DNA from: Beijerinckia sp. 28-YEA-48
GTDB lineage: Bacteria > Pseudomonadota > Alphaproteobacteria > Rhizobiales > Beijerinckiaceae
Reading direction: 5' to 3'
DNA length: 64,000 bases
NCBI RefSeq assembly: GCF_900104955.1
Contig: NZ_FNSI01000002.1
Coordinates: 248,001 to 312,000 of the forward strand
The notes beneath the pieces are model-generated. The model made no database searches and was not told where the DNA came from. It saw only the letters and a program-made list of their open reading frames with translations. Below, piece by piece: positions 8,384 through 23,567 of this stretch. A program made the translations under genes and the position numbers. Positions within the stretch are counted from its first letter, which is position 1. Each line of letters starts with the position of its first letter.

Positions 8384-9436
8384 TTAAAGATGGCTCTTGG
8401 CGAAATCTGCCATCGCCGGCTTGAATAGATGCGCCCTGTCATGCGCACAGTGTCCACTATGTTCATAGAAAATGACGTCCATGGAACTCTGTGCTCTTTC
8501 GCCCAGCCTCGTTATCGAATCCCGCGGTGCGATGGGGTCCTGTCCTCCCTGCACGACAAGCAAGGGCACATCTATGCGCTCCGCGAAGCCATCCAAATCG
8601 AAACCTTTGAAGAAGGCGCGAGCTTCTATAAGGGAGGTCATGCTGGCCGCGCGCATGAATCGCTGCTGCAGTGATGTCGATAGCTGATCGAAGTCGCGCA
8701 GATGGTAGATGAGCCCCCAGGCGATCGCGACCTTGATCCTTGGGTCTGTCGCAGCGGCTTTACACGCCCAGTGTCCTCCGGTGCTGCGTCCGAGAACGCC
8801 AATCCGATTTGGATCAATAGCCGTTTGCGCACCGGCAAAAGTGACAGTGGCAGAAACGGCTTTCTCATAGTCAAGCCGCATCTTCATGCGGTGGAACACT
8901 TCACCCTGCCCTGGACCATCGAAGGTCAAAGTCGCGATATTTCTCGCTAAGAAGTAGCTCGACAGCTCGAACGCATCTTCCTTAGTGGTATCGAGGCCAC
9001 CAAAAAGGATCATACAGGGAAACGGTCCCAGGCCGATCGGCAAGCGGAGATAGCCCGGTAGGAGGGAGTTTTCGAACGGGATGGCAACAGATTCGCACTG
9101 CGGCTGCAGAAGCGAAGCACCGCGCGCGAACAATTGCTGTTTACGTTGATCGGCTTGGAGCTTTTCCTCAGCACCAATCTCCATAAGAATGCCCTGGCCG
9201 AAATGACAGCATAAAGCGGCGCGCCAGAACCGCTCACCAGCTGTCAGATTGCCCCCTTTATCAAGGGCATCGTAAGCCTGCGCCTCATACTCTTCCGATA
9301 AGACGATCCAACGAGCACACCAATCTTGCAGATTGGTAATGTCACGCTTGAGAAAGTCGAGATCACGACAAGGGATTCCATCGGAGACAATGCGCATAGC
9401 ATTGGCATCGATGGCATTAGCGACAGCAATATCCAC
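8384..9436 (-). CDS. alpha/beta hydrolase, dihydroxypseudooxynicotine-hydrolase-like
   Basis: 350-residue alpha/beta hydrolase with an N-terminal helical cap (residues ~20-115). The nucleophile elbow is GRSTGGHW (Ser218), with Asp300 in VVQGGQDPIAP and His329 in EHSGHCAHD as the likely triad. The layout resembles 2,6-dihydroxypseudooxynicotine hydrolase, which cleaves a C-C bond beside a dihydroxypyridine ring, and related FrsA-like esterases. The start is a GTG at 9436 that overlaps the preceding Mo-hydroxylase stop by one base (TAGTG), so the two are translationally coupled. C-C hydrolysis of a ring-hydroxylated ketone is the natural guess; a plain esterase is possible. Confidence 0.82.
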   Translation of the reverse strand: MDIAVANAIDANAMRIVSDGIPCRDLDFLKRDITNLQDWCARWIVLSEEYEAQAYDALDKGGNLTAGERFWRAALCCHFGQGILMEIGAEEKLQADQRKQQLFARGASLLQPQCESVAIPFENSLLPGYLRLPIGLGPFPCMILFGGLDTTKEDAFELSSYFLARNIATLTFDGPGQGEVFHRMKMRLDYEKAVSATVTFAGAQTAIDPNRIGVLGRSTGGHWACKAAATDPRIKVAIAWGLIYHLRDFDQLSTSLQQRFMRAASMTSLIEARAFFKGFDLDGFAERIDVPLLVVQGGQDPIAPRDSITRLGERAQSSMDVIFYEHSGHCAHDRAHLFKPAMADFAKSHL

Positions 9437-11751
9437 TATATCTGTCCTTGTCGCATGAGTTCACGCACCGTTGGCGGGGTCATCATTGGCTCGCGTATGG
9501 CGATGTGCCCACCGAGTGCATCGGTAATGGCGCCAGCTATGGCTGCTGCGACAGGTCCGACATTACCTTCGCCAACCCCACGCACGCCCAATGGGTTAGT
9601 CGTTGCCGGAAATTCAAAATGTTTCAGGATCAGTTCCGGGATATCCCGGGCGTGTGGCATGACATAGTCCATCAAAGTGCCGGTCACGAGTTGGCCTTCG
9701 GGCGAATAAATGATCTTCTCGCCCATCGCGATGCCTAGCCCCTGAGCAAAGGACCCCATCACCTGTCCCTCAACGAGCGTTGGATTGATCTGCCGTCCGC
9801 AGTCATGCCCGATGGCATATTTCAAAATTTTCCAAGTGCCCGTTTCTAGATCCAGCTCGACTACAGCCGCATGTGTCCCGCTGGCCCAAGTTACGGTCGA
9901 CGGATAGAAGTATTGCGTCGAGCACAGACCCGGTGTTCCCTCGGTCGCGAGAATGCGCGAGAAGGCCGCCGTTGCCGCGATTGTCGGCCACGCAGCGACT
10001 TTTTGCCGATCGTCGGCAGCAAAGACCTCGCCATTCTCGATCTGTACCTGATCGGATTCGCAGCCAAGCAGTTTTCCGGCAACAAGCTGAATACGTCGCC
10101 GAACATCCTTGGCGGCCAATGCCACAGCGTTACCGGTGTTGACTGTCACGCGGCTGCCCCCGGTTCCAAAGCCGTAGGGCAACAGTCGAGAGTCACCGCC
10201 GAGCACGCGCACATTCTCAAATGGTAAGCTGAGTAGATCCGCGCAAATCTGGGCGAAGACCGTTTCATGTCCCTGCCCCGATTGTGAAACGCCAATCATG
10301 ACCTCCGCGCGGCCGGCCTCGTCGATCTTAACGGTGGCGCCCTCGCATGGCCAGCCGATTCCACCAGCTTCCATATAGTTTGCGACGCCGATCCCAATGC
10401 GGCGCTTTTGCCCGGAGAGACATTCCCTCTGCCTGGCCCGCCAGTGCTCGACATCCACTGCCGCAACCGTTTCATTGAAGACGAGCGGAAAATCGTTTGA
10501 GTCGTAAGTCACCTCGACACCGTCTCGGTAGACATTGCCGGGCTTATAGGGAATCGCGGAAGCTGGAATAAGATTTCGGCGGCGAATTTCGATCGGATCA
10601 ATATTGAGCTTGATTGCCAGCAGATCGAGGCAACGCTCCATCACCCAGGTCGCCTCGGGCCGGCCGGTCCCACGATATGGCGCCGATGGTACCTTATTGG
10701 TGAGAACGGAATGCGCTTCCGCTCGATATGCCGGTAAAACGTATTGTGATGGAATGTGATTGATGGTGTTGGTAGGCTCAATCACGGCCCAGCAGAGATA
10801 GGCACCCGTGTCCTTGAGAAGTTTGACATCAAGGCCGAGCAGCGTGCCATCCGCTCGCGCCGCCACCCGCGCTTCAATGATCTGATCACGCGCATGTTGC
10901 GAACTCAGCATGAATTCAGAGCGTGTTTGAATCCATTTGACGGGACGATTGACCGTCTTTGCCAGCAGTGGCGCAAGAATGTCTTCGGAATAGAGGCCGG
11001 ATTTCGGCCCGAATGCACCTCCTGTATCCGGGCAGAGCACCACGATATCTTCCTCGCGCAGCCCAGTGAAACGGGCGACGGCGGAGCGCACCGTATAAGG
11101 AAGTTGATGGCCGATTCGAATCGTCAAGGACGAACGCGCGCTCTCATATTCTGCGCTAACACCGCGCGTTTCTATCGGCACGGACGTAATGCGCGGATAA
11201 ACAAAATGCTCGGATAGCACTACGTCGCCATTGGCAAAGGCTGCATCGATGTCGCCTATATTTGCTGCCAGATGCGCCACGATATTGGATTGGCCTTCAT
11301 GTACGCGCCGTTCATCCGACATGGCAAACACTGGGTCAACGACGGGATCGGTAGGCTCGTAATCTATCTCGACCGCCTCCGCGGCGTCGACCGCCCCCGC
11401 AGGCGTCGATGCCAAAACCGCGGCAACAGGTTCACCGACATAGCGCACCACTCCATCGGCCAAAGCGAGCTGTGGCGGCGGCCGCATAAGATCGCAATAG
11501 GGGTTGGTCGCAGGCTCACGAAACAAAGGCAGAGACTCGGCAAGCGTCGGCAGGTCGTGAAAGAACCAGACCGAATGTGCCCCCTGTTCAAGCGCCGCCT
11601 CGGAGCTTGCCGAGACAATTCGCGCGGAAGGATGCGGCGAGCGAACAAGTGCCATATAGAGGCAATTGGCCGGCGTATAGTCGTCGACGAACTGCCCCTT
11701 GCCGCGTAGTAGCCTATTGTCCTCTTTTCGCAGATTCCGCTTTCCGATCAT
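9436..11751 (-). CDS. xanthine dehydrogenase-family molybdopterin-binding (large) subunit
   Basis: 771-residue catalytic subunit of a CoxL-like Mo-hydroxylase, which hydroxylates N-heteroaromatic rings or aldehydes using water. GGAFGPK and AYRGTGRPEA are Mo-cofactor-contact motifs, and the catalytic Glu728 is in RGVGEGNVGP. The AYRGTGR loop lacks the Cys-containing VAYRCSFR loop of form I CO dehydrogenase, so this is not a CODH. The gene overlaps the GntR gene upstream (ATGA) and the hydrolase downstream (TAGTG). Its FAD and 2Fe-2S partners are not adjacent; the only candidates in this region are at 19433-20728 on the other strand. Confidence 0.92.
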   Translation of the reverse strand: MIGKRNLRKEDNRLLRGKGQFVDDYTPANCLYMALVRSPHPSARIVSASSEAALEQGAHSVWFFHDLPTLAESLPLFREPATNPYCDLMRPPPQLALADGVVRYVGEPVAAVLASTPAGAVDAAEAVEIDYEPTDPVVDPVFAMSDERRVHEGQSNIVAHLAANIGDIDAAFANGDVVLSEHFVYPRITSVPIETRGVSAEYESARSSLTIRIGHQLPYTVRSAVARFTGLREEDIVVLCPDTGGAFGPKSGLYSEDILAPLLAKTVNRPVKWIQTRSEFMLSSQHARDQIIEARVAARADGTLLGLDVKLLKDTGAYLCWAVIEPTNTINHIPSQYVLPAYRAEAHSVLTNKVPSAPYRGTGRPEATWVMERCLDLLAIKLNIDPIEIRRRNLIPASAIPYKPGNVYRDGVEVTYDSNDFPLVFNETVAAVDVEHWRARQRECLSGQKRRIGIGVANYMEAGGIGWPCEGATVKIDEAGRAEVMIGVSQSGQGHETVFAQICADLLSLPFENVRVLGGDSRLLPYGFGTGGSRVTVNTGNAVALAAKDVRRRIQLVAGKLLGCESDQVQIENGEVFAADDRQKVAAWPTIAATAAFSRILATEGTPGLCSTQYFYPSTVTWASGTHAAVVELDLETGTWKILKYAIGHDCGRQINPTLVEGQVMGSFAQGLGIAMGEKIIYSPEGQLVTGTLMDYVMPHARDIPELILKHFEFPATTNPLGVRGVGEGNVGPVAAAIAGAITDALGGHIAIREPMMTPPTVRELMRQGQI

Positions 11752-12518
11752 GGCAGCTCCGACAGCGCATTCATTTTTTCAGGATCTTTAGTCTCGAGAT
11801 GGAGACTGTTGCGAAGAACGGGATTGGTGATCTTGTAGGCGTTCTCCAGCTCGACAATGTGTTCACGCATCAGATTTTCAGCGGCATCGCTGTCACGTTT
11901 GCGCACGGCTTCGCAGATTTTCTCGTGCCATATTCTGTTAGAGTTGATGATCTTGAGCTGTTCGGGGCTCTCACGGGACCGAACGATGCTTCGCAAGCTG
12001 CGGTTGATGAATTTGCAATGCACGCACAGCAGCGGATTGGAGGCGCCATCAGCCAACAGATCATGAAACTCGATATGAATCTGCTGATGCCGCTGCCAGT
12101 CTTCGCGCGTCGTCGGATCACCTTGCGAGGCCTGCACATTGGCCTCAAGCCGGCGGATCAGATCCTCGCTAGCCGTTTCGGCCATGTGTCCGGCCAATCG
12201 CGGCTCAAGAACGCGGCGAAGTTCATAGACTTGCGCAGCGGTTAGATGCTTGAAGAAGAAATAGCTTTGCAGATGATTGAGAATACGTGTCTCGGTCACT
12301 TCCGCGATGAACGAACCGCCAGTGGGGCCGGTGCTCGTGCGGATCAGGCCCTGAACCTCCAGTGATTTAAGAGCCTCGCGCACGGAGGCCTTTCCAGCCT
12401 CATACTTTTCGACAAGCTGTTTTTCCGTCGGCAAGCGATCGCCTGGCTTCAGCCCGTCGGTGACAATCGACTGCTTAATCAGATCGGCGATGACATCGCC
12501 GCGCTTTGGGTACCGCAT
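11748..12518 (-). CDS. GntR-family (FCD/FadR-type) transcriptional regulator
   Basis: 256 residues: N-terminal GntR winged helix (LKPGDRLPTEKQLVEKYEAGKASVREALKSLEVQGLI) and C-terminal FCD ligand-binding helices (LRRVLEPRLAGHMAE; EFHDLL; metal-ligand-like histidines in HIEFH and EHIVELENA). It is first in the leftward unit with the Mo-hydroxylase and hydrolase, and divergent from the Rieske gene, so it probably governs both directions from the 12607-12623 palindrome. The effector is likely a pathway acid, as is common for FCD regulators. Confidence 0.9.
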   Translation of the reverse strand: MRYPKRGDVIADLIKQSIVTDGLKPGDRLPTEKQLVEKYEAGKASVREALKSLEVQGLIRTSTGPTGGSFIAEVTETRILNHLQSYFFFKHLTAAQVYELRRVLEPRLAGHMAETASEDLIRRLEANVQASQGDPTTREDWQRHQQIHIEFHDLLADGASNPLLCVHCKFINRSLRSIVRSRESPEQLKIINSNRIWHEKICEAVRKRDSDAAENLMREHIVELENAYKITNPVLRNSLHLETKDPEKMNALSELP

Positions 12519-12592: not shown

Positions 12593-12623
12593 TTGACCTA
12601 TTTATATGATAATATGATTATCA
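12593..12623 (+). promoter_or_regulatory. sigma70-like promoter overlapped by GntR-type operator
   Basis: TTGACC (12593-12598), a 17-base spacer and GATTAT (12616-12621) form a plausible promoter toward the Rieske gene. The perfect palindrome TGATAAT-atg-ATTATCA (12607-12623) covers its -10 region, the expected geometry for repression by the divergent FCD-type GntR protein. The palindrome is an exact observation; the promoter call is inference. Confidence 0.5.
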
Positions 12624-12706
12624 GATCAAATGAAAGTTGCGCCGAGGGAGTGGCGCGCTGATCTCGAACACGTTGGATGCGAGAAAAGCTGACAGGAGCG
12701 GGGGTT

Positions 12707-13981
12707 ATGCAGAGTCGAGATGCTGTTATTCCGTATGGCGGTTATCACCTTCGGGAGGTCGACGCCGGGGAGGACGTGGATCTGACGCATGTCGGCCCGG
12801 GCACGCCTGGGGGCGAATATCTGCGGCGCTTTTGGCATCCGGTCGCCTTTTCAGAGGAAATCCAGGATCTACCAAAGCGCATCAAAGTGCTCTGCGAAGA
12901 TCTGGTTCTCTTCCGCGACAAGTCCGGCAATGTCGGCCTTGTTCGCCCGCACTGCCCGCATCGTGGCGCCTCACTCGAATTCGGCATTCCCGACGAGCGC
13001 GGTATCCGCTGCTGCTATCATGGCTGGCTGATCGGAACGGATGGCCGAATTCTGGAGATGCCTGCTGAGCCGGCCAATTCCCCCTACAAGGATCGCATCA
13101 GCCACGGCGCCTATCCGGTGAAGGAATTCAAGGGCCTCATTTTCGCTTATATGGGGCCGCCTGATAAAATGCCGGCGCTACCGATCTACGATGCCTGCCT
13201 GCGTCCTGGCGGCCGCCTGATCCCCAGCGGCTGGACGCCGGGCCGCAAATATGTCTGGCCGTGCAACTGGGTGCAGGTCAAAGAAAACTCAATGGATCCT
13301 GTGCACACCTACTATCTGCACACGATCGCCAGTGGTTCACAATTCACGCCGGAATTCGGCATTGTGCCGGAGTTGGAATATAAAGAAACGCCGATTGGCA
13401 TGGTGTATATCGCCAGTCGCCGCATCGGCGACAATGTCTGGGTCCGCATGCATGACCTGATCATGCCGAATATCCATCTCGTCGCCTCCGTCAATGAAGA
13501 CGGCAAGAAAGAAAAGAAATTCGGACCGCCCTATCTTCTGCATTGGGCCACGCCGATCGACGACAGCAGCTTCATGGAAATCGGCTGGCTGATCGAAAGC
13601 GACGACATGCAGTTCGACGCTGAAATGATCGAAAAATTGCATTTCGGCATGATGGACGACCGCCCGTTCGAAGAACGGCAGCGGACGCCAGGCGACTACG
13701 ATGCCCAAGTTTCCCAAGGCGCCATCCATGTTCATGCGCGCGAACATCTCGGCGCGAGCGACCGCGGTGTGACGATGTTCCGCCGCATGCTGCGCGCCGG
13801 CATCGACGACGTGAAAGCGGGCCGCGATCCGAAAGGATTGGGCCGCGAGGAAGGCGCCGTCATCCAGACCTATACCCAGAATGCCGTCGTGCGCACGCCC
13901 AAGACTTCCGATCCGGATGAAGACAAGAAGCAGGTGCGCGAAGTTGGCCGCCGCGTTTTCACCGGCGAGTTCAGGGACTGA
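12707..13981 (+). CDS. Rieske [2Fe-2S] aromatic ring-hydroxylating oxygenase, alpha subunit
   Basis: 424-residue oxygenase of the phenoxybenzoate-dioxygenase/VanA-like group. The Rieske cluster ligands are Cys83-x-His85 and Cys102-x2-His105 (CPH...CCYH). The mononuclear iron site is ENSMDPVHTYYLH, with His200 and His205. ATG 12707 is chosen over 12677 because CAGGAG sits about ten bases before it. No beta subunit is present, which is normal for this alpha-only group. The reductase at 18471-19409 in the same unit is the likely electron donor. It hydroxylates or O/N-dealkylates the aromatic substrate imported by the ABC system that follows. Confidence 0.92.
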   Translation: MQSRDAVIPYGGYHLREVDAGEDVDLTHVGPGTPGGEYLRRFWHPVAFSEEIQDLPKRIKVLCEDLVLFRDKSGNVGLVRPHCPHRGASLEFGIPDERGIRCCYHGWLIGTDGRILEMPAEPANSPYKDRISHGAYPVKEFKGLIFAYMGPPDKMPALPIYDACLRPGGRLIPSGWTPGRKYVWPCNWVQVKENSMDPVHTYYLHTIASGSQFTPEFGIVPELEYKETPIGMVYIASRRIGDNVWVRMHDLIMPNIHLVASVNEDGKKEKKFGPPYLLHWATPIDDSSFMEIGWLIESDDMQFDAEMIEKLHFGMMDDRPFEERQRTPGDYDAQVSQGAIHVHAREHLGASDRGVTMFRRMLRAGIDDVKAGRDPKGLGREEGAVIQTYTQNAVVRTPKTSDPDEDKKQVREVGRRVFTGEFRD

Positions 13982-14156: not shown

Positions 14157-15218
14157 ATGAGTACGCCACCGAAGGTCGCTCTCAAGGGAATTACCAAGCG
14201 CTACGGGCCTTTGACGGTCAACGATGGTATTGATCTGGATATTCTCGCCGGCGAGTTTCTGACGCTTCTGGGCAGCAGCGGTTCCGGCAAGACGACCCTG
14301 ATGCGCATCGTCGCCGGTTTGGAAATGTGCGACAGTGGCACGGTTTATCTCGACGGACGCGATGTGACGCGAGAGCCGCCGCGCCGACGCGATCTCGGCA
14401 TGGTGTTCCAGCAATATTCGCTATTTCCACACATGACGGTCGCCGAAAACATCCGCTACGGCCTGCGCGTTAAACGCTGGAAGGGTCCGGATGCCGCCAA
14501 ACGCGTGGCAGAAATGCTCGAAATGGTGCAGCTGCCGCAAGTTGCCAATCGCTATCCGCATCAGCTTTCCGGCGGCCAGCAACAGCGCGTCGCCCTAGCC
14601 CGCGCCTTGGCGACATCGCCGCAGGTGCTGATGCTGGACGAACCGCTCGGTGCTCTCGATCTCAAGCTGCGCAAGCAGCTGCAAGTAGAACTGAAGCGCA
14701 TTCATCGGCAGACCGGAACGACATTTCTGTTCGTTACGCACGACCAGGAAGAAGCCCTATCCATGTCCGATCGCGTCGCCGTTCTCAAGAACGGAAAGAT
14801 CGAACAACTGGGAGACACGCGCTCGATCTATCAGGCGCCGCAGACGGCTTTCGTCGCCGACTTCATCGGCGAAGTCAGCCTCGTCTCCTGTGATCGCAGC
14901 GGCGCGCCGTCCGGCATGGCCCGGATCGACGGCACCAGCTACGAAATTCGCATTCCCGCTGACAGTGTTCCGGGCCGTTTCAAGCTCGTCGTCCGCCCCG
15001 AGCATGTGCTGCTGCACAAAGATGCCTCGATCGGAGGCATTCCGGGGCGGATCGCCGATGTCGGCTTTGAGGGGGGCTCTTCGCTCATCCGTGTCGATCT
15101 CGACAACGGACCGACTGTGAAAGCGCGGGTGCTGGGTCTGCCGGAATCGGCCACCGAAATCGGTCAGCGGGTCTGGGCTGAGATCGCCGGGGCCACCGTC
15201 TGCCTCCCCGCCGCATGA
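14157..15218 (+). CDS. ABC transporter ATPase, polyamine/PotA-like
   Basis: 353-residue ATPase: Walker A GSSGSGKTT (residues 39-47), Q-loop VFQQYSLFP, signature LSGGQQQR, Walker B VLMLDEPLGALD, switch His in FVTHDQEEAL, then a C-terminal TOBE domain (IRIPADSVPGRFKLVVRPEHV). The TOBE domain and neighbours make this a PotABCD-type importer for a small, often cationic or amine-containing, solute. ATG 14157 fits the family N-terminus; an in-frame ATG at 14148 is possible, and the frame extends far upstream without coding character. It powers the permeases encoded next. Confidence 0.92.
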   Translation: MSTPPKVALKGITKRYGPLTVNDGIDLDILAGEFLTLLGSSGSGKTTLMRIVAGLEMCDSGTVYLDGRDVTREPPRRRDLGMVFQQYSLFPHMTVAENIRYGLRVKRWKGPDAAKRVAEMLEMVQLPQVANRYPHQLSGGQQQRVALARALATSPQVLMLDEPLGALDLKLRKQLQVELKRIHRQTGTTFLFVTHDQEEALSMSDRVAVLKNGKIEQLGDTRSIYQAPQTAFVADFIGEVSLVSCDRSGAPSGMARIDGTSYEIRIPADSVPGRFKLVVRPEHVLLHKDASIGGIPGRIADVGFEGGSSLIRVDLDNGPTVKARVLGLPESATEIGQRVWAEIAGATVCLPAA

Positions 15219-15229
15219 GGGATGTGACG

Positions 15230-16105
15230 ATGACCTCGCTGACTTCAGCCCGCCGACGCAAGACGACCTTGATGGCGGCCGTCCTGGTCCTTCCCGCATT
15301 GATCGTCATCGCGGGGCTGATGGCGGTTCCGCTGGCCCAGCTCGTCCAAGCCAGTTTCCACCGCGCCGAGTTCGGCCAGATTCTTCCCGGCCGAACCTTC
15401 GAGAACTATCAGACGGTTCTGTTCTCTCCGCTCTACTGGGAAATCTACGCCAAGACGCTCGGCGCGGCGGCGCTAGTGACACTGCTTTGCACGATCTTGG
15501 GCTATCCCGTCGCTTGGCATCTCGTGAACGCACGCAAGAGCGTTCAGCCCCTGCTCTTCTTCCTCATCGCCGCTCCGCTACTCGTCAACACCGTCGTTCG
15601 CACCTACGGCTGGCTGCTACTGCTTGGTCGCAAAGGCGTGATCAATACGGTTCTCATGCAGCTCGGGCTGATCGACAATCCGCTGACCTTGACGAGCAAC
15701 TACATCGGCCTCGTCGTTGGCAGCACGCAGGTCTTCTTGCCCTTCATGATCTTGTCCATCGCCACATCCCTGCAAGGTATCGACCGCCGCCTGTTGGAAT
15801 CAGCCGACATCCTAGGCGCATCGGGGCCCTACCGCTTCTTCACCGTCGACCTGCCGCTCGCCGCGCCGGGGCTGATCGCCGGTGCCATCCTCGTGTTCAG
15901 CCTGATGCTCGGCGCTTTCGTCACTCCACTCATGCTTGGCGGATCGGCAATCCAGTACCTCTCGGTCTCGGTCTATACCGACGCGCTTGTTTTGTTCAAT
16001 CTACCGCGCGCCACCGCCCTGTCGATGATCCTGCTGGCGATCACGGCGGCCATCTACGCCTTCCAGGCGCGCCTGTCTCCCCGCCTCAAGGAGACCCAAC
16101 GATGA
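15230..16105 (+). CDS. ABC transporter permease, PotB-like
   Basis: 291-residue inner-membrane permease with about six predicted membrane segments, starting with MAAVLVLPALIVIAGLMAVPLAQLV. The cytoplasmic EAA-like loop is LLESADILGASGPYRFFTVDLPLAAPGL. ATG 15230 has GAGGG seven bases upstream; an ATGA overlap with the ATPase stop allows 15215 as an alternative. It pairs with the next gene to form the heterodimeric channel. Confidence 0.9.
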   Translation: MTSLTSARRRKTTLMAAVLVLPALIVIAGLMAVPLAQLVQASFHRAEFGQILPGRTFENYQTVLFSPLYWEIYAKTLGAAALVTLLCTILGYPVAWHLVNARKSVQPLLFFLIAAPLLVNTVVRTYGWLLLLGRKGVINTVLMQLGLIDNPLTLTSNYIGLVVGSTQVFLPFMILSIATSLQGIDRRLLESADILGASGPYRFFTVDLPLAAPGLIAGAILVFSLMLGAFVTPLMLGGSAIQYLSVSVYTDALVLFNLPRATALSMILLAITAAIYAFQARLSPRLKETQR

Positions 16106-16905
16106 GCTCAAGGCCCAACGTCACGCTCAGTATCAGTGTCGCGCTGATCTATCTGTTCCTGCTCGCGCCACTAATCATTGTCGTTCTCTTCAGCTTCAGC
16201 GAAAAGTCGTTCTTCACCTTCCCGCCAGAAGGCTTCTCCCTGCGCTGGTATAAGTCAGCTTGGGAACTCGGCATTTTCGGCGGACCGGCCATTCGCAGTA
16301 TCATTCTGGCGGTCAGCGCGACATTTCTCGCCACAGTCCTCGCCATTCCCTCGGCGCTCGCCTTGCGGCGCCTGCAAGGTTCGCTCCTGGCGCGGGTTCT
16401 GGAATTTGTCCTGCTGACGCCCCTGATCGTGCCGGCCCTGATCATCGGCATCGCCTTGCTCTACTTCCTGATCCGCGTCGATATGATCGACACGTTTCCA
16501 GCTCTGCTGGGCGCCCACACGCTCCTGGTTTTTCCGTTCATGTTCCGGGCGATTTTAGTCAACGCCCTCGACATCAAGAAACATCTGGAAGAAGCCTCCG
16601 AGATTCTCGGTGCCGGTCCCTGGCGCACTTTCTTCAGCGTCGTGATGCCTAGCCTCGTCCCTGGCATTACGTCGGGCGCAATTTTCGCTTTCATCGTTTC
16701 GTTTGACCAGTTCACGGTCAGCCTGTTCGTGACGCAGTCCGATCAGATCACGCTGCCGGTGGCGCTCTACAAATATGTCTACGACGTCAACGATCCGGTC
16801 GCGGCGGCCGTGTCCAGCACGCTGGTCATTCTTGGTCTCGTCGTCGCATTCGGCCTGCAAAAGCTAGGCTTGCTGGAGCATATCGGCGGACGAGGGACCG
16901 CCTGA
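16102..16905 (+). CDS. ABC transporter permease, PotC-like
   Basis: 267-residue permease with a signal-anchor-like first segment (VALIYLFLLAPLIIVVLFSFS) and the EAA-like loop LEEASEILGAGPWRTFFSVVMPSLVPGI. The ATG overlaps the preceding stop as ATGA and has AAGGAG nine bases upstream. Longer in-frame upstream sequence lies inside the PotB-like gene and is not coding. Second half of the membrane channel of the PotABCD-like importer. Confidence 0.9.
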   Translation: MSSRPNVTLSISVALIYLFLLAPLIIVVLFSFSEKSFFTFPPEGFSLRWYKSAWELGIFGGPAIRSIILAVSATFLATVLAIPSALALRRLQGSLLARVLEFVLLTPLIVPALIIGIALLYFLIRVDMIDTFPALLGAHTLLVFPFMFRAILVNALDIKKHLEEASEILGAGPWRTFFSVVMPSLVPGITSGAIFAFIVSFDQFTVSLFVTQSDQITLPVALYKYVYDVNDPVAAAVSSTLVILGLVVAFGLQKLGLLEHIGGRGTA

Positions 16906-16945: not shown

Positions 16946-17986
16946 ATGAACATCAAACAAGCAAATCTAGTTCGGTTGTACGGGTCGATGGCTTTGGTCG
17001 GAGCCCTGTCCGTGATGGCCGTTACCGAAAGTTCGGCGCAGCAGCAGCTCATCATGAGCGGATACCCAGGCACGATCGGCAACAACATCAAGAAGGCCTT
17101 CGTCGGTACATACGATCGGGCTTCGGGCCTCCGCTACCTCGAATCCTGGGACAGCGCGCGCTTCACGCAGATGCAGGCCAATCGCGCCAATCCGAAAGAA
17201 GACGTCGTCACCTTCACGGATCTCACCCTGCCGCTCGTTGCGGCCGCGGGCCTGCTCGAGCCGCTCGACACGAAGACGATTCCCGCACTTGCCGACGTCG
17301 ACCCGTCGGTACGCGTAGCTGGTGATGCCGGCGTTCCCTTCACCTATGGCTGCTTTGGCATCGCCTACAATGCCAAATATGTGAAAAATCCAATCACCTC
17401 CTGGGCCGATCTGTTACGCGACGATCTCAAGGGACACGTTTCGGCCCCCAATGTGACTTACACCGGCGCTTTCAACACGTTGGACGGCCTATCGCGCACT
17501 AAGGGCGGCACCCTCAAGAATCCCGAGGAAGGCATGAAGCTCTATCAGCGCATCCGCACCTCCGGGCCCGGCCTGTGGGATCAGGAAAATGTCGCCGTTG
17601 GTTGGCTCAAGACTGGCGAAGTGTGGGCTACGCCCTATTTCAGCGGCAACGTCCTGGTCATGATGAATGATCCTGATCTCAAGGATCTGCGCTTCGTCGT
17701 TCCCTCAGAAGGCGCCTACTACGCGCCGCTGGCGGTGGCGAAGGTCAAGGGCCGCCCTGAGAACGATGGCGCCAGCCGCTTCATCAATCACATGTTGAGC
17801 CCAGAGAACCAGGAGAAATGGGCGGAGCTGGGCAAGACTCGTCCCGTCAACACGAAGGCCAAGGTGCCAGACGACGTCGCCGCCTCCTGCCCGACGGCAA
17901 GTAAATTGAACAAGGTCGATATCGACTACCTCAATCGCTATCGCAACAACATCGTCGATCAATGGAACCAGATCGTCAATCGTTGA
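16946..17986 (+). CDS. ABC transporter periplasmic substrate-binding protein, PotD-like
   Basis: 346-residue family 1 solute-binding protein. The N-terminal signal peptide has a hydrophobic core LYGSMALVGALSVMAV and probable cleavage after ESSA before QQQLIMSG. AAGGAGG six bases before ATG 16946 fixes the start over 16931. The lobe motifs (FTYGCFGIAYNAKYV, GWLKTGEVWATPYFSG) resemble the spermidine/putrescine and aminoalkylphosphonate binding group. It captures the substrate for the 14157-16905 importer. The ligand is unknown, but a small amine or N-heterocycle would suit the neighbouring enzymes. Confidence 0.9.
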   Translation: MNIKQANLVRLYGSMALVGALSVMAVTESSAQQQLIMSGYPGTIGNNIKKAFVGTYDRASGLRYLESWDSARFTQMQANRANPKEDVVTFTDLTLPLVAAAGLLEPLDTKTIPALADVDPSVRVAGDAGVPFTYGCFGIAYNAKYVKNPITSWADLLRDDLKGHVSAPNVTYTGAFNTLDGLSRTKGGTLKNPEEGMKLYQRIRTSGPGLWDQENVAVGWLKTGEVWATPYFSGNVLVMMNDPDLKDLRFVVPSEGAYYAPLAVAKVKGRPENDGASRFINHMLSPENQEKWAELGKTRPVNTKAKVPDDVAASCPTASKLNKVDIDYLNRYRNNIVDQWNQIVNR

Positions 17987-18035
17987 GGCGTCAGTGTTTC
18001 CCGAAGCGAATTGCAAACCCAAGCTGGATAACGTC

Positions 18036-18419
18036 ATGAGCAATAGACAAATTATTCCCATTCCCAACGCCCATAAGGTTGCAGCGCCGCTCGCGCATGC
18101 CGTACGCATCGGTGACCTTCTTTATGTCTCCGGCGTCCCTGGCTATTTTGGCGATCGCGAACTGGCCGTGGATGATTTCGAGGCGCAGTGTGAACAGGCC
18201 CTCGACAATCTCAACATCATCCTTACCGAGGCTGGATCGTCATTCGACAAAATCGTCAAGACGAATGTCATCTTGACCCGGCAGGGCGACTTCGCGGCGA
18301 TGAACGACCTTTACCGGAAACGCTTCAGCGCCGGAAATTTCCCCGCGCGTACTACGATCATCGCCGATCTGTCGCGGCCGGAAATGCTTCTGGAAATAGA
18401 GGTCGTTGCCGCTTTTTAG
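18036..18419 (+). CDS. RidA-family enamine/imine deaminase
   Basis: 127-residue YjgF/YER057c/UK114 protein. The active-site Arg of the family is in FPARTTI and the Glu in LLEIEVVAAF. Members hydrolyse 2-enamines/2-imines, and catabolic versions include 2-aminomuconate deaminase. ATG 18036 gives the usual family length; the frame runs back to a GTG at 17994. Its place between an importer and ring-hydroxylation genes suggests it removes ammonia from a ring-opened, nitrogen-bearing intermediate rather than acting as a housekeeping RidA. Confidence 0.88.
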   Translation: MSNRQIIPIPNAHKVAAPLAHAVRIGDLLYVSGVPGYFGDRELAVDDFEAQCEQALDNLNIILTEAGSSFDKIVKTNVILTRQGDFAAMNDLYRKRFSAGNFPARTTIIADLSRPEMLLEIEVVAAF

Positions 18420-19432: not shown

Positions 19433-19915
19433 ATGATGAGCGTACCCATTTCAGTGGTCGTGAACGGCAAAGCGATCGAAACCACCGTGGACGAGCGAAC
19501 CCTTCTGGTGACGTTCATCCGAGAAGATTTGAAACTGACCGGCACTCATATCGGATGCGATACGGCGCAATGCGGCGCTTGTTCGATCCATTTGAATGGC
19601 GCGGTGGTGAAAGCCTGCTCTATGCTGGCCCTACAGGCGCAGGGAGGCATGATCACAACGATCGAGGGCATCGCCGAATCCGACACCCAATTGCATCCCA
19701 TGCAACACGCCTTCAGCGAAAATCACGCGCTGCAATGCGGATTTTGCACGCCGGGCATGGTGATGACCGCGCTCGATATCATCAAGGAATATCCCGCGCC
19801 GACGCGCGAGATCGTACAGGAAGGTCTCGACGGCAATCTGTGCCGGTGCACGGGCTATAACGGCATCATCGACGCGGTGATCGCCGGCGCCAAAGCCATG
19901 AACGCGCGGAAATAG
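19433..19915 (+). CDS. Mo-hydroxylase small subunit, two 2Fe-2S clusters (CoxS-like)
   Basis: 160 residues. The first cluster motif is HIGCDTAQCGACSIHLNG with a later Cys in VKACSML; the second is ALQCGFCTPGM and NLCRCTGYNGI. This is the electron-transfer subunit of a xanthine-dehydrogenase-family enzyme. Two adjacent ATGs (19433, 19436) are possible starts. It is followed nine bases later by the FAD subunit, and the large subunit is probably the one at 9436-11751, on the opposite strand 8 kb away. Confidence 0.93.
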   Translation: MMSVPISVVVNGKAIETTVDERTLLVTFIREDLKLTGTHIGCDTAQCGACSIHLNGAVVKACSMLALQAQGGMITTIEGIAESDTQLHPMQHAFSENHALQCGFCTPGMVMTALDIIKEYPAPTREIVQEGLDGNLCRCTGYNGIIDAVIAGAKAMNARK

Positions 19916-19924
19916 GAGCGCCCG

Positions 19925-20728
19925 ATGTTCATGCACCCCTATACCTATCATCGCCCGGGCAGCCTGTCGGACGCCTTGAAGCTCGCCTCAGAGCTGCCGG
20001 ACCCGAAATTCTTGGCCGGCGGGCAGACGTTGGTCCAGGCCATGAAACTACGCCTGGCCGCCCCCAGCGATCTGATCGATCTCAGTGGCCTCGCCGAACT
20101 TCGCGGCATCGACATTCGCAACGAAGCAATCTCGATCGGCGCCATGACCAAGCATGCCGAGGTCTATGGCCATGCCGAGATCAAAAAGCGGATCGGCGCC
20201 CTGGCCTATCTGGCTTCGCAGATCGGCGACCGGCAGATTCGTAACAACGGTACGATCGGCGGTTCCCTCGCCAATTCGGATCCGGCCGCTGATTATCCGG
20301 CAGCAGCATTGGGGCTTGGTGCCACTCTGAAGACGAACGATCGCGAAATTGCCGCCGACGATTTCTTCGTTAGCCTCTATGAGACCGCACTGATGCCGAA
20401 CGAACTGCTCGTTTCAATCCGTCTCCCGGTTCCCAAGCGCGCCGGCTATGTGAAGTTCAAGAGCCCGGCGTCCGGCTTCGCGCTGGTCGGTGTTTTCGTG
20501 GCCGACTTCGGCGATCATGTGCGGGTGGCCGTGACCGGCGCCGGCCCGAAGGTGTTTCGCATTGCCGAGGTGGAACAGGCACTCGGTGCCTCCTTCTCGC
20601 CGAATGCATTGGAGAATATCCGCGTGTCGGCCGACGGGCTGAGCACGGACCTGCAAGCCAATGCCGAATATCGCGCCCATTTGATTCCGGTGCTCGCGCG
20701 ACGCGCGGTTGAATCGGCGCTCGCCTGA
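19925..20728 (+). CDS. Mo-hydroxylase FAD-binding subunit (CoxM-like)
   Basis: 267 residues. FAD-binding motifs are FLAGGQTLVQAMKLRLAAP and IRNNGTIGGSLANSDPAADYPAA, the latter contacting the isoalloxazine, followed by the CO-dehydrogenase flavoprotein C-terminal domain. AGGAG precedes the ATG. It accepts electrons from the 2Fe-2S subunit encoded just upstream and passes them to an unidentified acceptor. No cysteine-rich insertion is present, unlike the FAD domain of the fused protein at 60592-63972. Confidence 0.93.
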   Translation: MFMHPYTYHRPGSLSDALKLASELPDPKFLAGGQTLVQAMKLRLAAPSDLIDLSGLAELRGIDIRNEAISIGAMTKHAEVYGHAEIKKRIGALAYLASQIGDRQIRNNGTIGGSLANSDPAADYPAAALGLGATLKTNDREIAADDFFVSLYETALMPNELLVSIRLPVPKRAGYVKFKSPASGFALVGVFVADFGDHVRVAVTGAGPKVFRIAEVEQALGASFSPNALENIRVSADGLSTDLQANAEYRAHLIPVLARRAVESALA

Positions 20729-20738: not shown

Positions 20739-21494
20739 ATGACGAATCTCAGCGGACGCACCATCATTATCACCGGCGCCGGCGGCCTGATCGGGCGGGC
20801 CTTCGCCAACGCCATCGGCTCGGCCGGCGCCAATACTATTCTGGCCGATCTCGAACCGCAGCCTGCCCTGGTCGATACGATCACCCGCAACGGCGGCAAG
20901 GCGGTTTCGCTGATCGTCGATATCAGCACTCCATCTTCGGTGGAGCGCATGGCGAATGAGGTCGTCGGCTCCTTCGGCCGTATCGACGGCCTCGTGAACA
21001 ACGCCGGCTTCTATCGCGGCTGCACGATGGGCTCCTTCGCCGACATTCCCGTCGATGAATGGGACCGCTGTTATAGCGTCAACGTCAGGGGAACCTGGCT
21101 GTGCTGCAAGGCCGTCTTCCCCTATATGCGGCAGCAGAACTACGGGAAGATCGTCAACATCTCGTCCAACACGCCCTTCAAAGGCGTTGGCGGCATGCTG
21201 CAATATGTCTCCTCCAAGGCAGCGATCATAGGCCTGTCCCGCGCTCTGGCGCGCGAAGTCGGCGACTACGGTATCTGCGTCAACAATCTGTGTCCCGACC
21301 TCATTCCCGATCCAAGCGATCTGCAGAACGAGGACGGGATCGTCGGCAACAAACGCGTCGTGGCGCAACGTTGTTTCAAGAGAACCGAAACCGCCGAAGA
21401 CGTGACCGGCGCCCTGGTATTTCTGCTGGGGCCGGGCTCCGATTTCGTCACCGGACAAAGCCTGCTCGTCAATGGCGGCGCGTTCTTTCACTAG
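20739..21494 (+). CDS. short-chain dehydrogenase/reductase (classical SDR)
   Basis: 251-residue Rossmann-fold oxidoreductase: TGAGGLIG nucleotide motif, NNAG (LVNNAGFY), and catalytic Tyr-x3-Lys in LQYVSSKAAI. ATG 20739 has AGGACAGG upstream. In a ring-hydroxylation operon the usual role is oxidising a cis-dihydrodiol to a catechol, or a hydroxyl to a ketone. Either would feed the extradiol dioxygenase encoded next. Confidence 0.9.
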   Translation: MTNLSGRTIIITGAGGLIGRAFANAIGSAGANTILADLEPQPALVDTITRNGGKAVSLIVDISTPSSVERMANEVVGSFGRIDGLVNNAGFYRGCTMGSFADIPVDEWDRCYSVNVRGTWLCCKAVFPYMRQQNYGKIVNISSNTPFKGVGGMLQYVSSKAAIIGLSRALAREVGDYGICVNNLCPDLIPDPSDLQNEDGIVGNKRVVAQRCFKRTETAEDVTGALVFLLGPGSDFVTGQSLLVNGGAFFH

Positions 21495-21553: not shown

Positions 21554-22642
21554 ATGCACAACGAAAAAAAGCGCACGGGTATTGTTGCCGCGGCGGCCGT
21601 GCCGCATGCGCCGCAGCTTCTGAGTCTGCCCAAGAGCGAGGACGCACAGCAGGTCGCGCGCGTCAAAGCCGCCATGCAGGAAATTGGCGATGGTTTCCGC
21701 AAAGCGAAGCCCGACATCTTGATCGTCATCTCCAACGACCATGGCGACGACTTTATTCTCAAGTCCATCCCGGCCTTCATGTTCCATTGCGGCAATCGCG
21801 CCCGCGGGCATGACGGGCATACCGGCTGGTGGAAGGTCGACGGTGCCGCCGGCTACGCCCTGGTGGAAGCCATGCAGGAGGAGGGCTTTGATCCCGCCTT
21901 CACGCTCGATGCCGATCTCGGCACCTTTTTCACAATCCCGGTCGAATACTTCGGCTTTGACCAGGAAACGCCGATCGTGCCGTTGTTCGTCAATTCCTAT
22001 GTCGCACCGCAGCCGCACCCGACGCGCTGCTATGCCTTCGGCCAAGCGCTGGCGCGCGCCGTGACCCGCATGGGCCTCAGCGCCGCCATCATCGGCAGCG
22101 GCGGTCTCTCGCATTATCCAGGCACGGCCCGCTATGCCTCACCCGGTCCAGATCTGGCAGCCGACGAGAAAATTTATCAGAAGCTGGCGGAAGGCAATCT
22201 ACATTACCTCTTGAGCCTCGACGCCCAAGAGCTCGACAAGTCAGGCAATATCGAACTGCGCGCATGGCTGATCATTGCTGGTGCGATTGGCGACCGGCGG
22301 CCGGAAGTCGCCACTTTCGAACCCAACTGGCATCACACCTACGGCATGTTCGGTTGGACGAACATCAAACCGCTTGAGCGCGACCGGCTGTGGTATCCGC
22401 CGACGCCACCGCACCGCGTCGAACTTTCCCACGCCATGCACGCGCTGCGAACGGACGATGCCGCCTGCGATTTTTACATGAGCGATCCGCTGGCCTTCGC
22501 CGACCGATTTGACCTGTCGTCCGAAGAACGCGCCGCTCTGCTGGAGATGAAAGAGGAACGCCTGCGCGACGAACTGCAGATTCACCCCCTGCTCGTAGGC
22601 GGAGCCACGCGCCGATTGCAGTTGCGCAAGAAGGCCAGCTAA
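21554..22642 (+). CDS. class III extradiol ring-cleavage dioxygenase, fused LigB-LigA-like
   Basis: 362 residues. Positions ~1-275 are the LigB-type catalytic domain with the early metal-binding His in AAVPHAPQLL and the NDHGDDF segment. The C-terminal ~75 residues (DPLAFADRFDLSSEERAALLEM to IHPLLVGGATRRL) resemble the small LigA subunit of protocatechuate 4,5-dioxygenase. Gallate dioxygenase-type enzymes have this fused form. It opens a dihydroxylated ring by Fe(II)/O2 meta cleavage. ATG 21554 follows AAAGGGA; the upstream open frame overlaps the SDR gene and is not coding. The substrate is unknown. Confidence 0.88.
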   Translation: MHNEKKRTGIVAAAAVPHAPQLLSLPKSEDAQQVARVKAAMQEIGDGFRKAKPDILIVISNDHGDDFILKSIPAFMFHCGNRARGHDGHTGWWKVDGAAGYALVEAMQEEGFDPAFTLDADLGTFFTIPVEYFGFDQETPIVPLFVNSYVAPQPHPTRCYAFGQALARAVTRMGLSAAIIGSGGLSHYPGTARYASPGPDLAADEKIYQKLAEGNLHYLLSLDAQELDKSGNIELRAWLIIAGAIGDRRPEVATFEPNWHHTYGMFGWTNIKPLERDRLWYPPTPPHRVELSHAMHALRTDDAACDFYMSDPLAFADRFDLSSEERAALLEMKEERLRDELQIHPLLVGGATRRLQLRKKAS

Positions 22643-22655: not shown

Positions 22656-23567
22656 ATGAGCTTGCCACCCTATATTCCACCAGCGCTGCGCCAACTGATG
22701 GCCGATGTCGGCCCGCGCTGGAAAGACGATATCAGCGGGCATATCCGCCTGATGCTCGATAACTTCAGCGCGCTCCTGAAGGATGCACCGAAAGAGGGCG
22801 TCGAGGTCAGGCGAGAGATCAAATACGGCGTCGATCCCAGGCAGGCCTATGACCTGTTTCTACCTCAAGCGGCAGGCACGGGCCGACCGGCTATGCTCTT
22901 CGTGCATGGCGGCGCCTTCACCGAAGGTCACCGCAACCGCACCGACGAGATTTACGCCAACGTTCTCTACTACCTGGCCCGCCACGGCATCGTCGGCGTG
23001 AACATTGGCTATCGTATCGCGCCCCAGGCCTGCTATCCTGAGGCGAGCCGCGACATTGGCGAAGTCGTTCAGGCGATCCATAACAGCGCACCGGAGATCG
23101 GCGTCGATCCACAGCGCATCTTTCTAATGGGCCATTCCGCCGGCGGGGCTCATGTGGCGACCTACGCCTATGATCGCAGCTTGCATCCAGTGGCCGGATC
23201 GGGGCTTGCCGGGCTTGTCATCGTCAGTGGCCGGGTGCGCGCCGAGAACCGTCCCGAAAACCCCAATGCGCGGCGGGTCGAAACCTATTACGAGACCACT
23301 GATCCCGGTACGCTCGATCGGCTGTCGCCCGTGTCACAGGTCGATGCCCAATCGATCCCAACGTTCATCGCCTGGGGCGAATATGAAAACCCACTGATCG
23401 ACGTACATTGTGCGGAGCTCGTTCACTGGCTTGCACAGGCCAAAGGATATACTCCGCCGACGATGTGGCTGCGCGGGCACAATCACACATCCACCATCGC
23501 CCATTTGAACACGAGCGAAGATAATCTCGGTTCAGCCTTGCGTGACTTCATCAATCGCCCACGATAA
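22656..23567 (+). CDS. alpha/beta hydrolase (HSL/arylformamidase-like)
   Basis: 303 residues. The oxyanion-hole motif is FVHGGAF and the nucleophile elbow GHSAGGAH. The fold is that of the hormone-sensitive-lipase/kynurenine-formamidase group, hydrolysing esters or N-formyl/amide bonds. It is the last gene of the rightward unit, 13 bases after the dioxygenase stop, so it plausibly acts on the ring-fission product or a formyl/amide side product. The exact bond cleaved is not predictable. Confidence 0.85.
   Translation: MSLPPYIPPALRQLMADVGPRWKDDISGHIRLMLDNFSALLKDAPKEGVEVRREIKYGVDPRQAYDLFLPQAAGTGRPAMLFVHGGAFTEGHRNRTDEIYANVLYYLARHGIVGVNIGYRIAPQACYPEASRDIGEVVQAIHNSAPEIGVDPQRIFLMGHSAGGAHVATYAYDRSLHPVAGSGLAGLVIVSGRVRAENRPENPNARRVETYYETTDPGTLDRLSPVSQVDAQSIPTFIAWGEYENPLIDVHCAELVHWLAQAKGYTPPTMWLRGHNHTSTIAHLNTSEDNLGSALRDFINRPR

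What the first reader, a model, noticed from the sequence alone, without database searches (positions are those of the whole stretch)
8384..23567. Candidate undescribed catabolic island for an N-containing aromatic compound
One divergent locus combines a three-subunit Mo-hydroxylase, a Rieske oxygenase with its own reductase, an SDR, a fused LigBA-type extradiol dioxygenase, RidA, two alpha/beta hydrolases and a PotABCD-like importer, under a GntR regulator. Mo-hydroxylase plus RidA suggests ring nitrogen or an amino substituent; the importer type suggests an amine or cationic substrate. The combination does not match any of the nicotine, nicotinate or quinoline pathways I know in full.
Basis: inference. 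Interest (0 to 1): 0.75.

Follow-up and report, generated by a model that had tools for sequence, protein, structure and literature searches.

The report
Gene island for degrading nitrogen aromatics
A set of about fifteen neighbouring genes, kept together in at least three other bacteria, looks like an undescribed route for importing and breaking down a nitrogen-containing ring compound, most likely a pyridine-type one, but the actual compound is not known.

Summary
The gene inventory is right and not a chance assembly. GntR-MoL-hydrolase // Rieske-ABC importer-RidA-reductase-MoS-MoM-SDR-LigBA-esterase recurs, with variations, in a Pseudolabrys MAG, a Nitratireductor MAG (two contigs) and the isolate Pusillimonas caeni. 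Its Rieske gene is absent from the 50 other genomes searched of the host genus, so transfer is likely. New: the 8384-9436 hydrolase is a relative of 2,6-dihydroxypseudooxynicotine hydrolase (32%, triad kept); the Mo large subunit is nearest quinoline 2-oxidoreductase and Kdh; the fused ring-cleaving enzyme matches gallate dioxygenase DesB best by fold. Many Burkholderiales LigBA relatives lie beside Mo-hydroxylases, Rid proteins and a flavoenzyme nearest a pyridine-ring oxygenase. I read it as N-heteroaromatic catabolism: Mo-hydroxylation beside nitrogen, second hydroxylation by the Rieske system, extradiol cleavage, deamination by RidA. The importer does not support an amine or cationic substrate. 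No gene-for-gene match turned up in an open-licence literature library. Substrate unknown; bicyclic or benzenoid substrates remain possible. New variant of a known kind.

The parts
8384..9436 (-). hydA: alpha/beta hydrolase of the 2,6-dihydroxypseudooxynicotine hydrolase (C-C hydrolase) kind; predicted to cleave an acyl side chain or the ring-fission product
   Evidence: PDB 2jbw E 2.4e-51; 32% to pAO1 DHPONH, Ser/Asp/His triad aligned; orthologues 56-66% in 3 other islands
9436..11751 (-). MoL: molybdopterin large subunit of a three-subunit Mo-hydroxylase
   Evidence: Pfam MoCoBD_1/2; PDB 1t3q QorL 2.9e-121, 7dqx KdhL 4e-119; loop PYRGTG and catalytic Glu kept
11748..12518 (-). GntR1: GntR/FCD regulator
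   Evidence: Pfam GntR+FCD; 60-77% in the other islands, the 77% over a 56-residue piece
12619..12629 (+). putative operator TATCAGATCAA in the divergent promoter region
   Evidence: only exact TATCNGATMAA in the 64 kb (10 with up to one mismatch, 5.85 expected); exact copies in the same gap of two islands, one-mismatch copy upstream of Rieske in the third; motif read off, so partly circular
12707..13981 (+). Rieske oxygenase alpha subunit (phthalate 4,5-dioxygenase-like, alpha only)
   Evidence: Pfam Rieske 4.4e-16; PDB 7fhr 6.5e-46
14157..15218 (+). ABC importer ATPase
   Evidence: NCBIfam PhnT2 and PotA, both below cut-off; start ATG
15215..16105 (+). ABC importer permease 1
   Evidence: ORF; 60-77% in other islands
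16102..16905 (+). ABC importer permease 2
   Evidence: ATG start, no internal stop; 68-72% in other islands
16946..17986 (+). ABC importer binding protein, ligand unknown
   Evidence: Pfam SBP_bac_8/6; weak PDB matches
17994..18419 (+). RidA-type enamine/imine deaminase (GTG start; an ATG lies at 18036)
   Evidence: Pfam PF01042 1e-24; catalytic Arg and Glu aligned (role from PMC4433059)
18471..19409 (+). reductase, presumably for the Rieske oxygenase (flavin, NAD, C-terminal plant-type 2Fe-2S)
   Evidence: Pfam Fer2, NAD_binding_1, FAD_binding_6; pairing inferred from adjacency
19433..19915 (+). MoS: 2Fe-2S subunit of the Mo-hydroxylase
   Evidence: NCBIfam small-subunit models; start ATG 19433 or 19436
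19925..20728 (+). MoM: FAD subunit of the Mo-hydroxylase
   Evidence: Pfam FAD_binding_5 1.5e-45
20739..21494 (+). SDR dehydrogenase, possible dihydrodiol dehydrogenase
   Evidence: Pfam adh_short_C2; 56% in Nitratireductor; none in the Pseudolabrys stretch, whose contig ends 1.3 kb past MoM
21554..22642 (+). LigBA: fused class III extradiol ring-cleavage dioxygenase
   Evidence: Pfam LigB 4.8e-26; H18, H63, H187, E234 invariant in 30 of 30; fold match to DesB
22656..23567 (+). BD-FAE / hormone-sensitive-lipase-like hydrolase (ester or amide cleavage)
   Evidence: Pfam BD-FAE 1.2e-22; PDB 4zrs esterase 1.4e-35; 62% in Pseudolabrys only
24730..25665 (+). FAH-family hydrolase of the neighbouring unit, possible lower-pathway member (tentative)
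   Evidence: Pfam FAA_hydrolase; homologue follows LigBA in L023 and lies in 9 of 18 LigBA loci

Best explanation
A sporadic, probably horizontally spread catabolic island for an N-heteroaromatic, most likely pyridine-type, compound. Inferred route: an ABC importer takes up the compound; the MoL-MoS-MoM hydroxylase adds oxygen from water to a ring carbon next to nitrogen; the Rieske oxygenase with its reductase (and, where present, the SDR) adds the second, neighbouring hydroxyl; the fused LigBA dioxygenase opens the ring of the resulting vicinal diol; the DHPON-hydrolase-like protein cuts a C-C bond (acyl side chain before, or ketone after, ring opening); the esterase-like hydrolase cuts an amide or ester left over; RidA releases ammonia from the enamine or imine. 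GntR1 controls both arms from the shared promoter region. Shown by sequence: gene content, conservation, and the aligned catalytic residues of hydA, MoL, RidA and LigBA. Inferred: substrate class, order of steps, each reaction, regulation.
For: Conserved order in three other genomes. MoL nearest QorL/KdhL; general-base Glu kept in 13 of 13 aligned, loop PYRGTG in the four islands where CODH has AYRCSF. hydA is of the DHPONH family. Rid-family gene in 4 of 4 islands and in 11 of 18 LigBA loci; MoL homologue in 13 of 18. In Burkholderiales LigBA loci the second hydroxylase appears to be a flavoenzyme (11 of 18 loci) whose L022 copy is nearest MHPCO, a pyridine-ring oxygenase (1e-49, next kind 1.3e-20). 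In LigBA trees one island (Nitratireductor L023) groups with the flavoenzyme-type clusters and one flavoenzyme-type locus (L017) groups with the islands, while the island MoLs are one clade: a hint that the two cluster types can share a ring-opening enzyme. Rhizobium plasmids carry a parallel set with a DHPONH-family hydrolase, LigA, LigB, flavoenzyme and Mo-hydroxylase.
Against: No substrate or activity data. MoL is 34% and hydA 32% identical to the characterised pAO1 proteins; 29-34% relatives of hydA are common in the host genus. Kdh's substrate-contact residues are not kept. Components vary: no SDR in the Pseudolabrys stretch, no PF01042 RidA and no reductase beside MoS in Pusillimonas (another Rid type and another SDR are there), the esterase only in Pseudolabrys. 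Rieske and LigBA by themselves resemble benzenoid-acid enzymes, and JGI names many LigBA homologues 2,3-dihydroxyphenylpropionate dioxygenase. The MHPCO clue comes from other clusters. LigBA otherwise follows cluster type: 8 of 9 island rows and 10 of 11 flavoenzyme-type rows are on separate sides, L023 has a long branch, and without it the well-supported branches no longer rule out one origin.
Confidence: 0.57

Rival explanations
1. Bicyclic N-heteroaromatic (quinoline, quinaldate/kynurenate or quinoxaline type): the Mo-enzyme works on the N-ring, the Rieske system dihydroxylates the fused benzene ring, the SDR restores aromaticity, LigBA opens that carbocyclic ring and hydA cuts the fission product.
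For: QorL is the best PDB match of MoL; the lumichrome pathway uses a xanthine-oxidase-like enzyme, a Rieske dioxygenase and an extradiol enzyme in this order (PMC12746152, passages read); SDR between MoM and LigBA here and in Nitratireductor; MhpB-type models score about as well as LigB-type ones; quinoline and kynurenate pathways recalled.
Against: SDR missing in one island as fetched; Rieske is far from 2-oxoquinoline 8-monooxygenase (3.5e-6 against 6.5e-46 for the phthalate type); LigBA is far below the MhpB cut-offs (80 against 286-291); a RidA step is not obvious if the N-ring survives.
Confidence: 0.18
2. Benzenoid substrate (phthalate-like acid, ether or aromatic amine): Rieske and LigBA do the usual work, the Mo-enzyme oxidises an aldehyde or side chain, RidA removes an amino group or only protects against damage.
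For: Rieske nearest phthalate dioxygenases, LigBA nearest LigB and DesB; two LigBA loci (L021, L029) show Rieske, reductase and a GFO/IDH/MocA-family gene and no Mo subunit (the L029 one by clustering with L021's); RidA-family AmnE works after aminophenol 1,6-dioxygenase (PMC6742747, passages).
Against: No aldehyde dehydrogenase among the island proteins scanned; Mo large subunit in 13 of 18 LigBA loci and MHPCO-like flavoenzyme in 11 of 18; a DHPONH relative has no role in phthalate routes that I know of.
Confidence: 0.18
3. Unrelated operons that lie side by side by chance.
For: SDR, RidA, reductase and esterase are each missing or replaced in some islands.
Against: Core order conserved in Alpha- and Betaproteobacteria; of 17 close Rieske clusters in the protein database, 5 share their longest-contig length with a listed LigBA hit and a sixth is the Pusillimonas contig.
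Confidence: 0.03

Closest known systems
Nicotine pyridine pathway of Paenarthrobacter nicotinovorans pAO1 (ndh, kdh, dhponh, dhph)
   Same: Mo-hydroxylase with the large subunit apart from the small ones, next to a DHPON hydrolase; MoL 34%, hydA 32%
   Different: Of 12 pAO1 proteins compared with 25 window proteins only Mo subunits and DHPONH match; DHPH, nitrilase and cyclase do not; Kdh substrate residues not kept; no Rieske, LigB or RidA is annotated in the 31-kb pAO1 stretch fetched
Lumichrome (riboflavin) catabolism, lum cluster, Nocardioides simplex (PMC12746152)
   Same: xanthine-oxidase-like enzyme, Rieske dioxygenase and extradiol dioxygenase in one route (passages)
   Different: Rieske of four components with alpha and beta subunits; P450, thiamin-dependent decarboxylase, other lower steps
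Quinoline to 8-hydroxycoumarin (Qor, OxoOR, MhpB; recalled)
   Same: Mo-hydroxylase nearest QorL, Rieske plus reductase, LigB-type dioxygenase
   Different: Rieske and dioxygenase belong to other subfamilies; DHPONH-like hydrolase and RidA are extra
LigAB / DesB (gallate dioxygenase) class III extradiol dioxygenases
   Same: LigB fold, iron-site residues, C-terminal LigA-like helical part; DesB is the best fold match
   Different: 19% identity to DesB; 50 bits against a cut-off of 412 for the gallate dioxygenase model
PydA (3,4-dihydroxypyridine dioxygenase, mimosine) and kpi 4-hydroxypyridine route (PMC7356986)
   Same: The authors annotate PydA as a 3,4-dihydroxypyridine dioxygenase in PF02900, so a LigB-type enzyme may open a dihydroxypyridine (passages)
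   Different: The kpi dioxygenase KpiC is not of that family; no PydA sequence was compared here
2-aminophenol amn pathway (PMC6742747)
   Same: aminophenol dioxygenase followed by a RidA-family deaminase (passages); aminophenol 1,6-dioxygenase structures are among the fold matches
   Different: amn has a semialdehyde dehydrogenase, the island has none among the proteins scanned; the island has a Mo-hydroxylase and a Rieske system

Membership tests
XO-family Mo-hydroxylase acting on N-heteroaromatics | three subunits with MoCo, 2Fe-2S and FAD domains | tested here: met
XO-family Mo-hydroxylase acting on N-heteroaromatics | hydroxylase-type active-site loop and general-base Glu, not CODH's AYRCSF | tested here: met
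   PYRGTG and Glu in 4 of 4 islands (loop meaning from PMC8305194 passages)
XO-family Mo-hydroxylase acting on N-heteroaromatics | oxidation of an N-heteroaromatic | not testable with these tools
   needs enzyme assay
Nicotine pyridine pathway | Kdh substrate residues E345 and W551 | tested here: not met
   Cys and Gly in 4 of 4 islands
Nicotine pyridine pathway | DHPH, nitrilase and cyclase present | tested here: not met
   12 pAO1 proteins against 25 window proteins: only Mo subunits and DHPONH match
DHPON hydrolase family | homology over nearly full length with the Ser-Asp-His triad | tested here: met
   triad roles recalled
DHPON hydrolase family | C-C hydrolysis of an acylpyridine | not testable with these tools
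   needs enzyme assay
Class III extradiol dioxygenase (LigB) | PF02900 over cut-off and iron-site residues | tested here: met
   91.9 bits against 26.3; residues invariant in 30 of 30, roles recalled
Fused LigBA / DesB type | C-terminal LigA-like domain | tested here: inconclusive
   DesB best fold match with alignment over the whole length but rmsd 13.5 A; PF07746 in 20 of 30 relatives at E<=1, not in this protein
Gallate or protocatechuate dioxygenase equivalog | NCBIfam equivalog cut-off | tested here: not met
   50.4 against 412; 53.9 against 837
Rieske ring-hydroxylating oxygenase, phthalate type | Rieske domain, phthalate-dioxygenase-like sequence, FNR-type reductase nearby | tested here: met
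   that the two work together is inferred
Lumichrome lum pathway | alpha plus beta Rieske subunits with separate ferredoxin and reductase | tested here: not met
   alpha only, single reductase; lum layout
PotABCD polyamine importer | binding protein and ATPase over PotD / PotA model cut-offs | tested here: not met
   PotD 22.4 against 582; PotA 361.5 against 482; TIGR01187 subfamily 349.3 against 355.6 (ATPase scanned without its first two residues)
RidA imine deaminase | Rid domain with catalytic Arg and Glu | tested here: met
   roles from PMC4433059 passages

The most novel reading that the evidence does not exclude
LigBA is a portable fused dioxygenase family dedicated to N-heteroaromatic diols: it opens 3-hydroxy-2-pyridone rings between C3 and C4, giving an N-alkenyl oxamate; an amidase (esterase or DLH-type here, a gamma-glutamyltranspeptidase-like Ntn hydrolase in Burkholderiales) frees oxalate, and RidA hydrolyses the enamine. 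Different Mo-enzyme and second-hydroxylase pairs (Rieske or MHPCO-like) have been combined with this same ring-opening module, with at least one exchange between the two cluster types.
Probability: 0.18. Interest if true: 0.68.

Novelty: new variant of a known kind. Interest (0 to 1): 0.5.

Why it matters
If right, it adds an undescribed route for aerobic N-heteroaromatic breakdown that combines a Mo-hydroxylase, a Rieske oxygenase and a fused LigBA dioxygenase, and gives a testable marker (LigBA beside a Mo-hydroxylase) for such routes in many Burkholderiales and some Alphaproteobacteria. A cultured carrier, Pusillimonas caeni KCTC 42353, opens the substrate question to direct growth and knockout tests.

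Tried and rejected
Chance neighbourhood: rejected by synteny. CO dehydrogenase: rejected on the active-site loop. Nicotine pathway gene for gene: rejected. Kynurenate/quinaldate gene clusters: the literature search listed mostly mammalian and medical papers, so the idea stays as a rival. Quinolinate: nothing useful listed. GGT as an oxamate amidohydrolase (HpxW, which I recall as 5hft): its two chains score 90.7 and 82.1 bits apart, while the cephalosporin acylase 2nlz scores 184.9, so not shown. Single-sequence scan of genome contigs found no relative; the alignment scan did. FadR-type operator TGTNNNACA (motif recalled): 7 found, 7.84 expected, none in the promoter region. DLH-family gene, neighbour of hydA in three of three other islands: no match in the window; a 46% homologue is on C1 of the host. 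Megablast against plasmids gave no match for 32000-56000 and, for 1-24000, 19 records; the 15 listed are the IS30 and short pieces of an ABC ATPase and a reductase. The small LigB loci kept as possible controls were only 2.9-3.8 kb, so no neighbourhood control was counted.

A claim mended on re-check: my first LigBA tree labelled only four island rows and counted all unlabelled rows as non-island, giving four forced changes. With 9 island rows (five of them labelled by that inference) and 11 flavoenzyme-type rows the tree needs 3 changes, 2 of them forced; without the long L023 row it needs 2, and one origin is not ruled out. I lowered the best-explanation and novel-case odds for this.

Literature: 'no match found' rests on searches of an open-licence library; most subscription papers are missing. 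I read passages of PMC12746152, PMC7356986, PMC8305194, PMC6742747 and PMC4433059, and saw only the listings of the others.
Full report
Observation. Two arms diverge from a 188-bp region: GntR1-MoL-hydA on the minus strand and Rieske-ABC(4)-RidA-reductase-MoS-MoM-SDR-LigBA-esterase on the plus strand; plus-strand gaps are -4 to +59 bp except 175 bp after Rieske (coordinates; itself used slightly wrong ATPase and MoS starts). A second unit with its own GntR starts 293 bp after the esterase.

Conservation. A single-sequence scan of the named genome collection found no relative of LigBA; a profile of 30 homologues (A1) found 18 loci. Mapping the window proteins onto them and onto longer stretches shows the same island in a Pseudolabrys MAG (L018/L055: 56-80% per gene; no SDR, the contig ending 1.3 kb past MoM), in Pusillimonas caeni (L019/L057/L058: 56-72%, and 77% over a short GntR piece; no PF01042 RidA and no reductase between SBP and MoS, but a PF14588 Rid protein and another SDR beside MoM) and in a Nitratireductor MAG, on the ends of two contigs (L059, L023: 41-75%). 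In these three a dienelactone-hydrolase-family gene follows hydA; the window has no match to it, and an IS30 transposase lies near that end. In the protein database the Rieske gene has 17 clusters at 66-96% identity among the 120 listed and then drops to 58%; 5 of these 17 share their longest-contig length with a listed LigBA hit and a sixth is the Pusillimonas contig, which I take as the same contigs.

Spread. A Rieske match at E<=1e-120 occurs in none of the 50 other genomes of the host genus (51 searched). hydA at E<=1e-70 occurs in none of 384 other genomes of the class sample (385 searched) and in 1 of 397 of the phylum sample (398 searched; 36% identity). Island GC is 58.6% against 51.4% (1-6800) and 55.2% (32000-64000). 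The host's one 16S match is 78-79% identical to those of three Burkholderiales, so the host is not close to Pusillimonas; Pseudolabrys and Nitratireductor are Alphaproteobacteria. Horizontal transfer is the simplest reading, not a proof.

Enzymes. MoL: best PDB matches are quinoline 2-oxidoreductase (2.9e-121) and Kdh (4e-119). It is 34% to both NdhC and KdhC of pAO1. In an alignment of 13 large subunits the general-base Glu is kept in all 13, and the loop reads PYRGTG in the four islands, where CODH has AYRCSF. Kdh's substrate residues E345 and W551 are Cys and Gly in all four, so it is not a Kdh. hydA: 2jbw, 2,6-dihydroxypseudooxynicotine hydrolase, at 2.4e-51, next 1.1e-16; its ten best plasmid hits are all on Arthrobacter or Paenarthrobacter plasmids, three annotated as this hydrolase. 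The family is broad, though: 29-34% relatives are common in the host genus. Rieske: phthalate-dioxygenase type. RidA keeps the Arg and Glu tied to imine hydrolysis. The binding protein is not assignable.

LigBA. The four residues that I recall as iron site and acid-base in LigAB (H18, H63, E234, H187) are invariant in 30 of 30. The model (mean pLDDT 89) matches the fused gallate dioxygenase DesB best (7.5e-21, 19% identity, alignment over the whole length but rmsd 13.5 A, so the halves are placed differently), then LigB. Pfam sees LigA in 20 of 30 members at E<=1 but not in the window protein.

Neighbours of LigBA elsewhere. Of the 18 loci, within the fetched stretch and with a hit over at least half the query, 13 hold a MoL homologue, 12 MoS, 12 MoM, 11 a Rid protein, 11 the flavoenzyme, 13 the GGT-like gene, 11 CoxG, 9 FAH, 4 a Rieske, 2 hydA. 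Several queries came from L022 and L019 themselves (the latter as L057/L058), so those loci count by construction. Stretches end about 10 kb from LigBA or at a contig end, so absences are not proof; L023's MoL and hydA are on the other contig, and its GGT-family gene is not in the count. L027 has none of these genes. No control set was counted. The flavoenzyme of L022 is nearest 2-methyl-3-hydroxypyridine-5-carboxylate oxygenase (1e-49; next kind 1.3e-20). Rhizobium rosettiformans and R. tropici plasmids have a third version: DHPONH-family hydrolase (26-28% to hydA), separate LigA and LigB, flavoenzyme, Mo-hydroxylase and CoxG.

Does LigBA follow the cluster type? In a tree of 39 LigBAs with 9 island rows (four from the mapped islands, five labelled by equal contig length) and 11 flavoenzyme-type rows, 8 of 9 island rows and 10 of 11 of the others lie on separate sides. 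The exceptions are the Nitratireductor island L023, inside the Comamonadaceae flavoenzyme group (long branch), and the flavoenzyme-type locus L017, inside the island side. Three changes are needed and two are forced by well-supported branches; without L023 two are needed and one origin is not ruled out. The island MoLs form one fully supported clade. One exchange of the ring-opening gene, in Nitratireductor, is thus likely but rests on one long-branched row; it would make sense if both cluster types meet a similar ring.

Regulation. The divergent gap shares TATCnGATMAA with two islands. The exact motif occurs once in the window, in that gap, once in L055, four times in L057 (one pair overlaps on opposite strands), and with one mismatch upstream of Rieske in L059; none in L058. 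As the motif was read from three of these, only L059 is an independent and weaker test.

Reading. Oxygenation by two different enzymes before an extradiol dioxygenase, together with a Rid deaminase and a relative of an acylpyridine C-C hydrolase, fits N-heteroaromatic catabolism best. Precedents: lumichrome breakdown uses a xanthine-oxidase-like enzyme, a Rieske dioxygenase and an extradiol enzyme (PMC12746152, passages); a LigB-type PydA was annotated as a 3,4-dihydroxypyridine dioxygenase (PMC7356986, passages); a RidA-family deaminase follows aminophenol dioxygenase (PMC6742747, passages). None matches this set gene for gene. A bicyclic or benzenoid substrate remains possible, and the compound is unknown. 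The neighbouring FAH, DapA-like and malonic-semialdehyde-reductase-like genes (the last 279 bits against a cut-off of 152) could form a lower pathway, which is speculation.

Noticed in passing
window 23861-30944 (+) and 30989-31813 (-): A second catabolic unit: GntR, FAH-family hydrolase, NMT1-type ABC importer, two VOC proteins, DapA-like aldolase, malonic-semialdehyde-reductase-like protein, and a BD-FAE hydrolase on the other strand.
   Followed up: partly
window 6834-7754 (-): IS30-family transposase, 77% identical to copies on Aminobacter plasmids, near the end of the island where the other islands have a dienelactone-hydrolase-family gene.
   Followed up: partly
window 45067-49012 (-): Hydantoinase A and B (oxoprolinase-type) pair, with an asparaginase-domain protein at 49942-51669: more nitrogen-compound catabolism.
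   Followed up: no
window 60556-63972 (+): 1138-aa ORF with the Mo large subunit and FAD subunit domains fused in one chain.
   Followed up: no
G000 (host genome): 27 stretches match MoL and 11 match LigBA at E<=0.001: a gene set rich in oxidative and aromatic-type enzymes.
   Followed up: no
L020, L022, L024, L025, L026, L028, L030-L032, L034: Burkholderiales clusters of Mo-hydroxylase subunits, fused LigBA, MHPCO-like flavoenzyme, CoxG and GGT-like Ntn hydrolase, often with a Rid protein, apparently another undescribed N-heteroaromatic route.
   Followed up: partly
L070, L071: Rhizobium plasmid clusters with a 3-keto-5-aminohexanoate cleavage protein, DHPONH-family hydrolase, separate LigA and LigB, flavoenzyme and Mo-hydroxylase.
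   Followed up: partly
L010 (G014, same genus): A 43% LigBA relative on a very long branch in a genome of the same genus.
   Followed up: no
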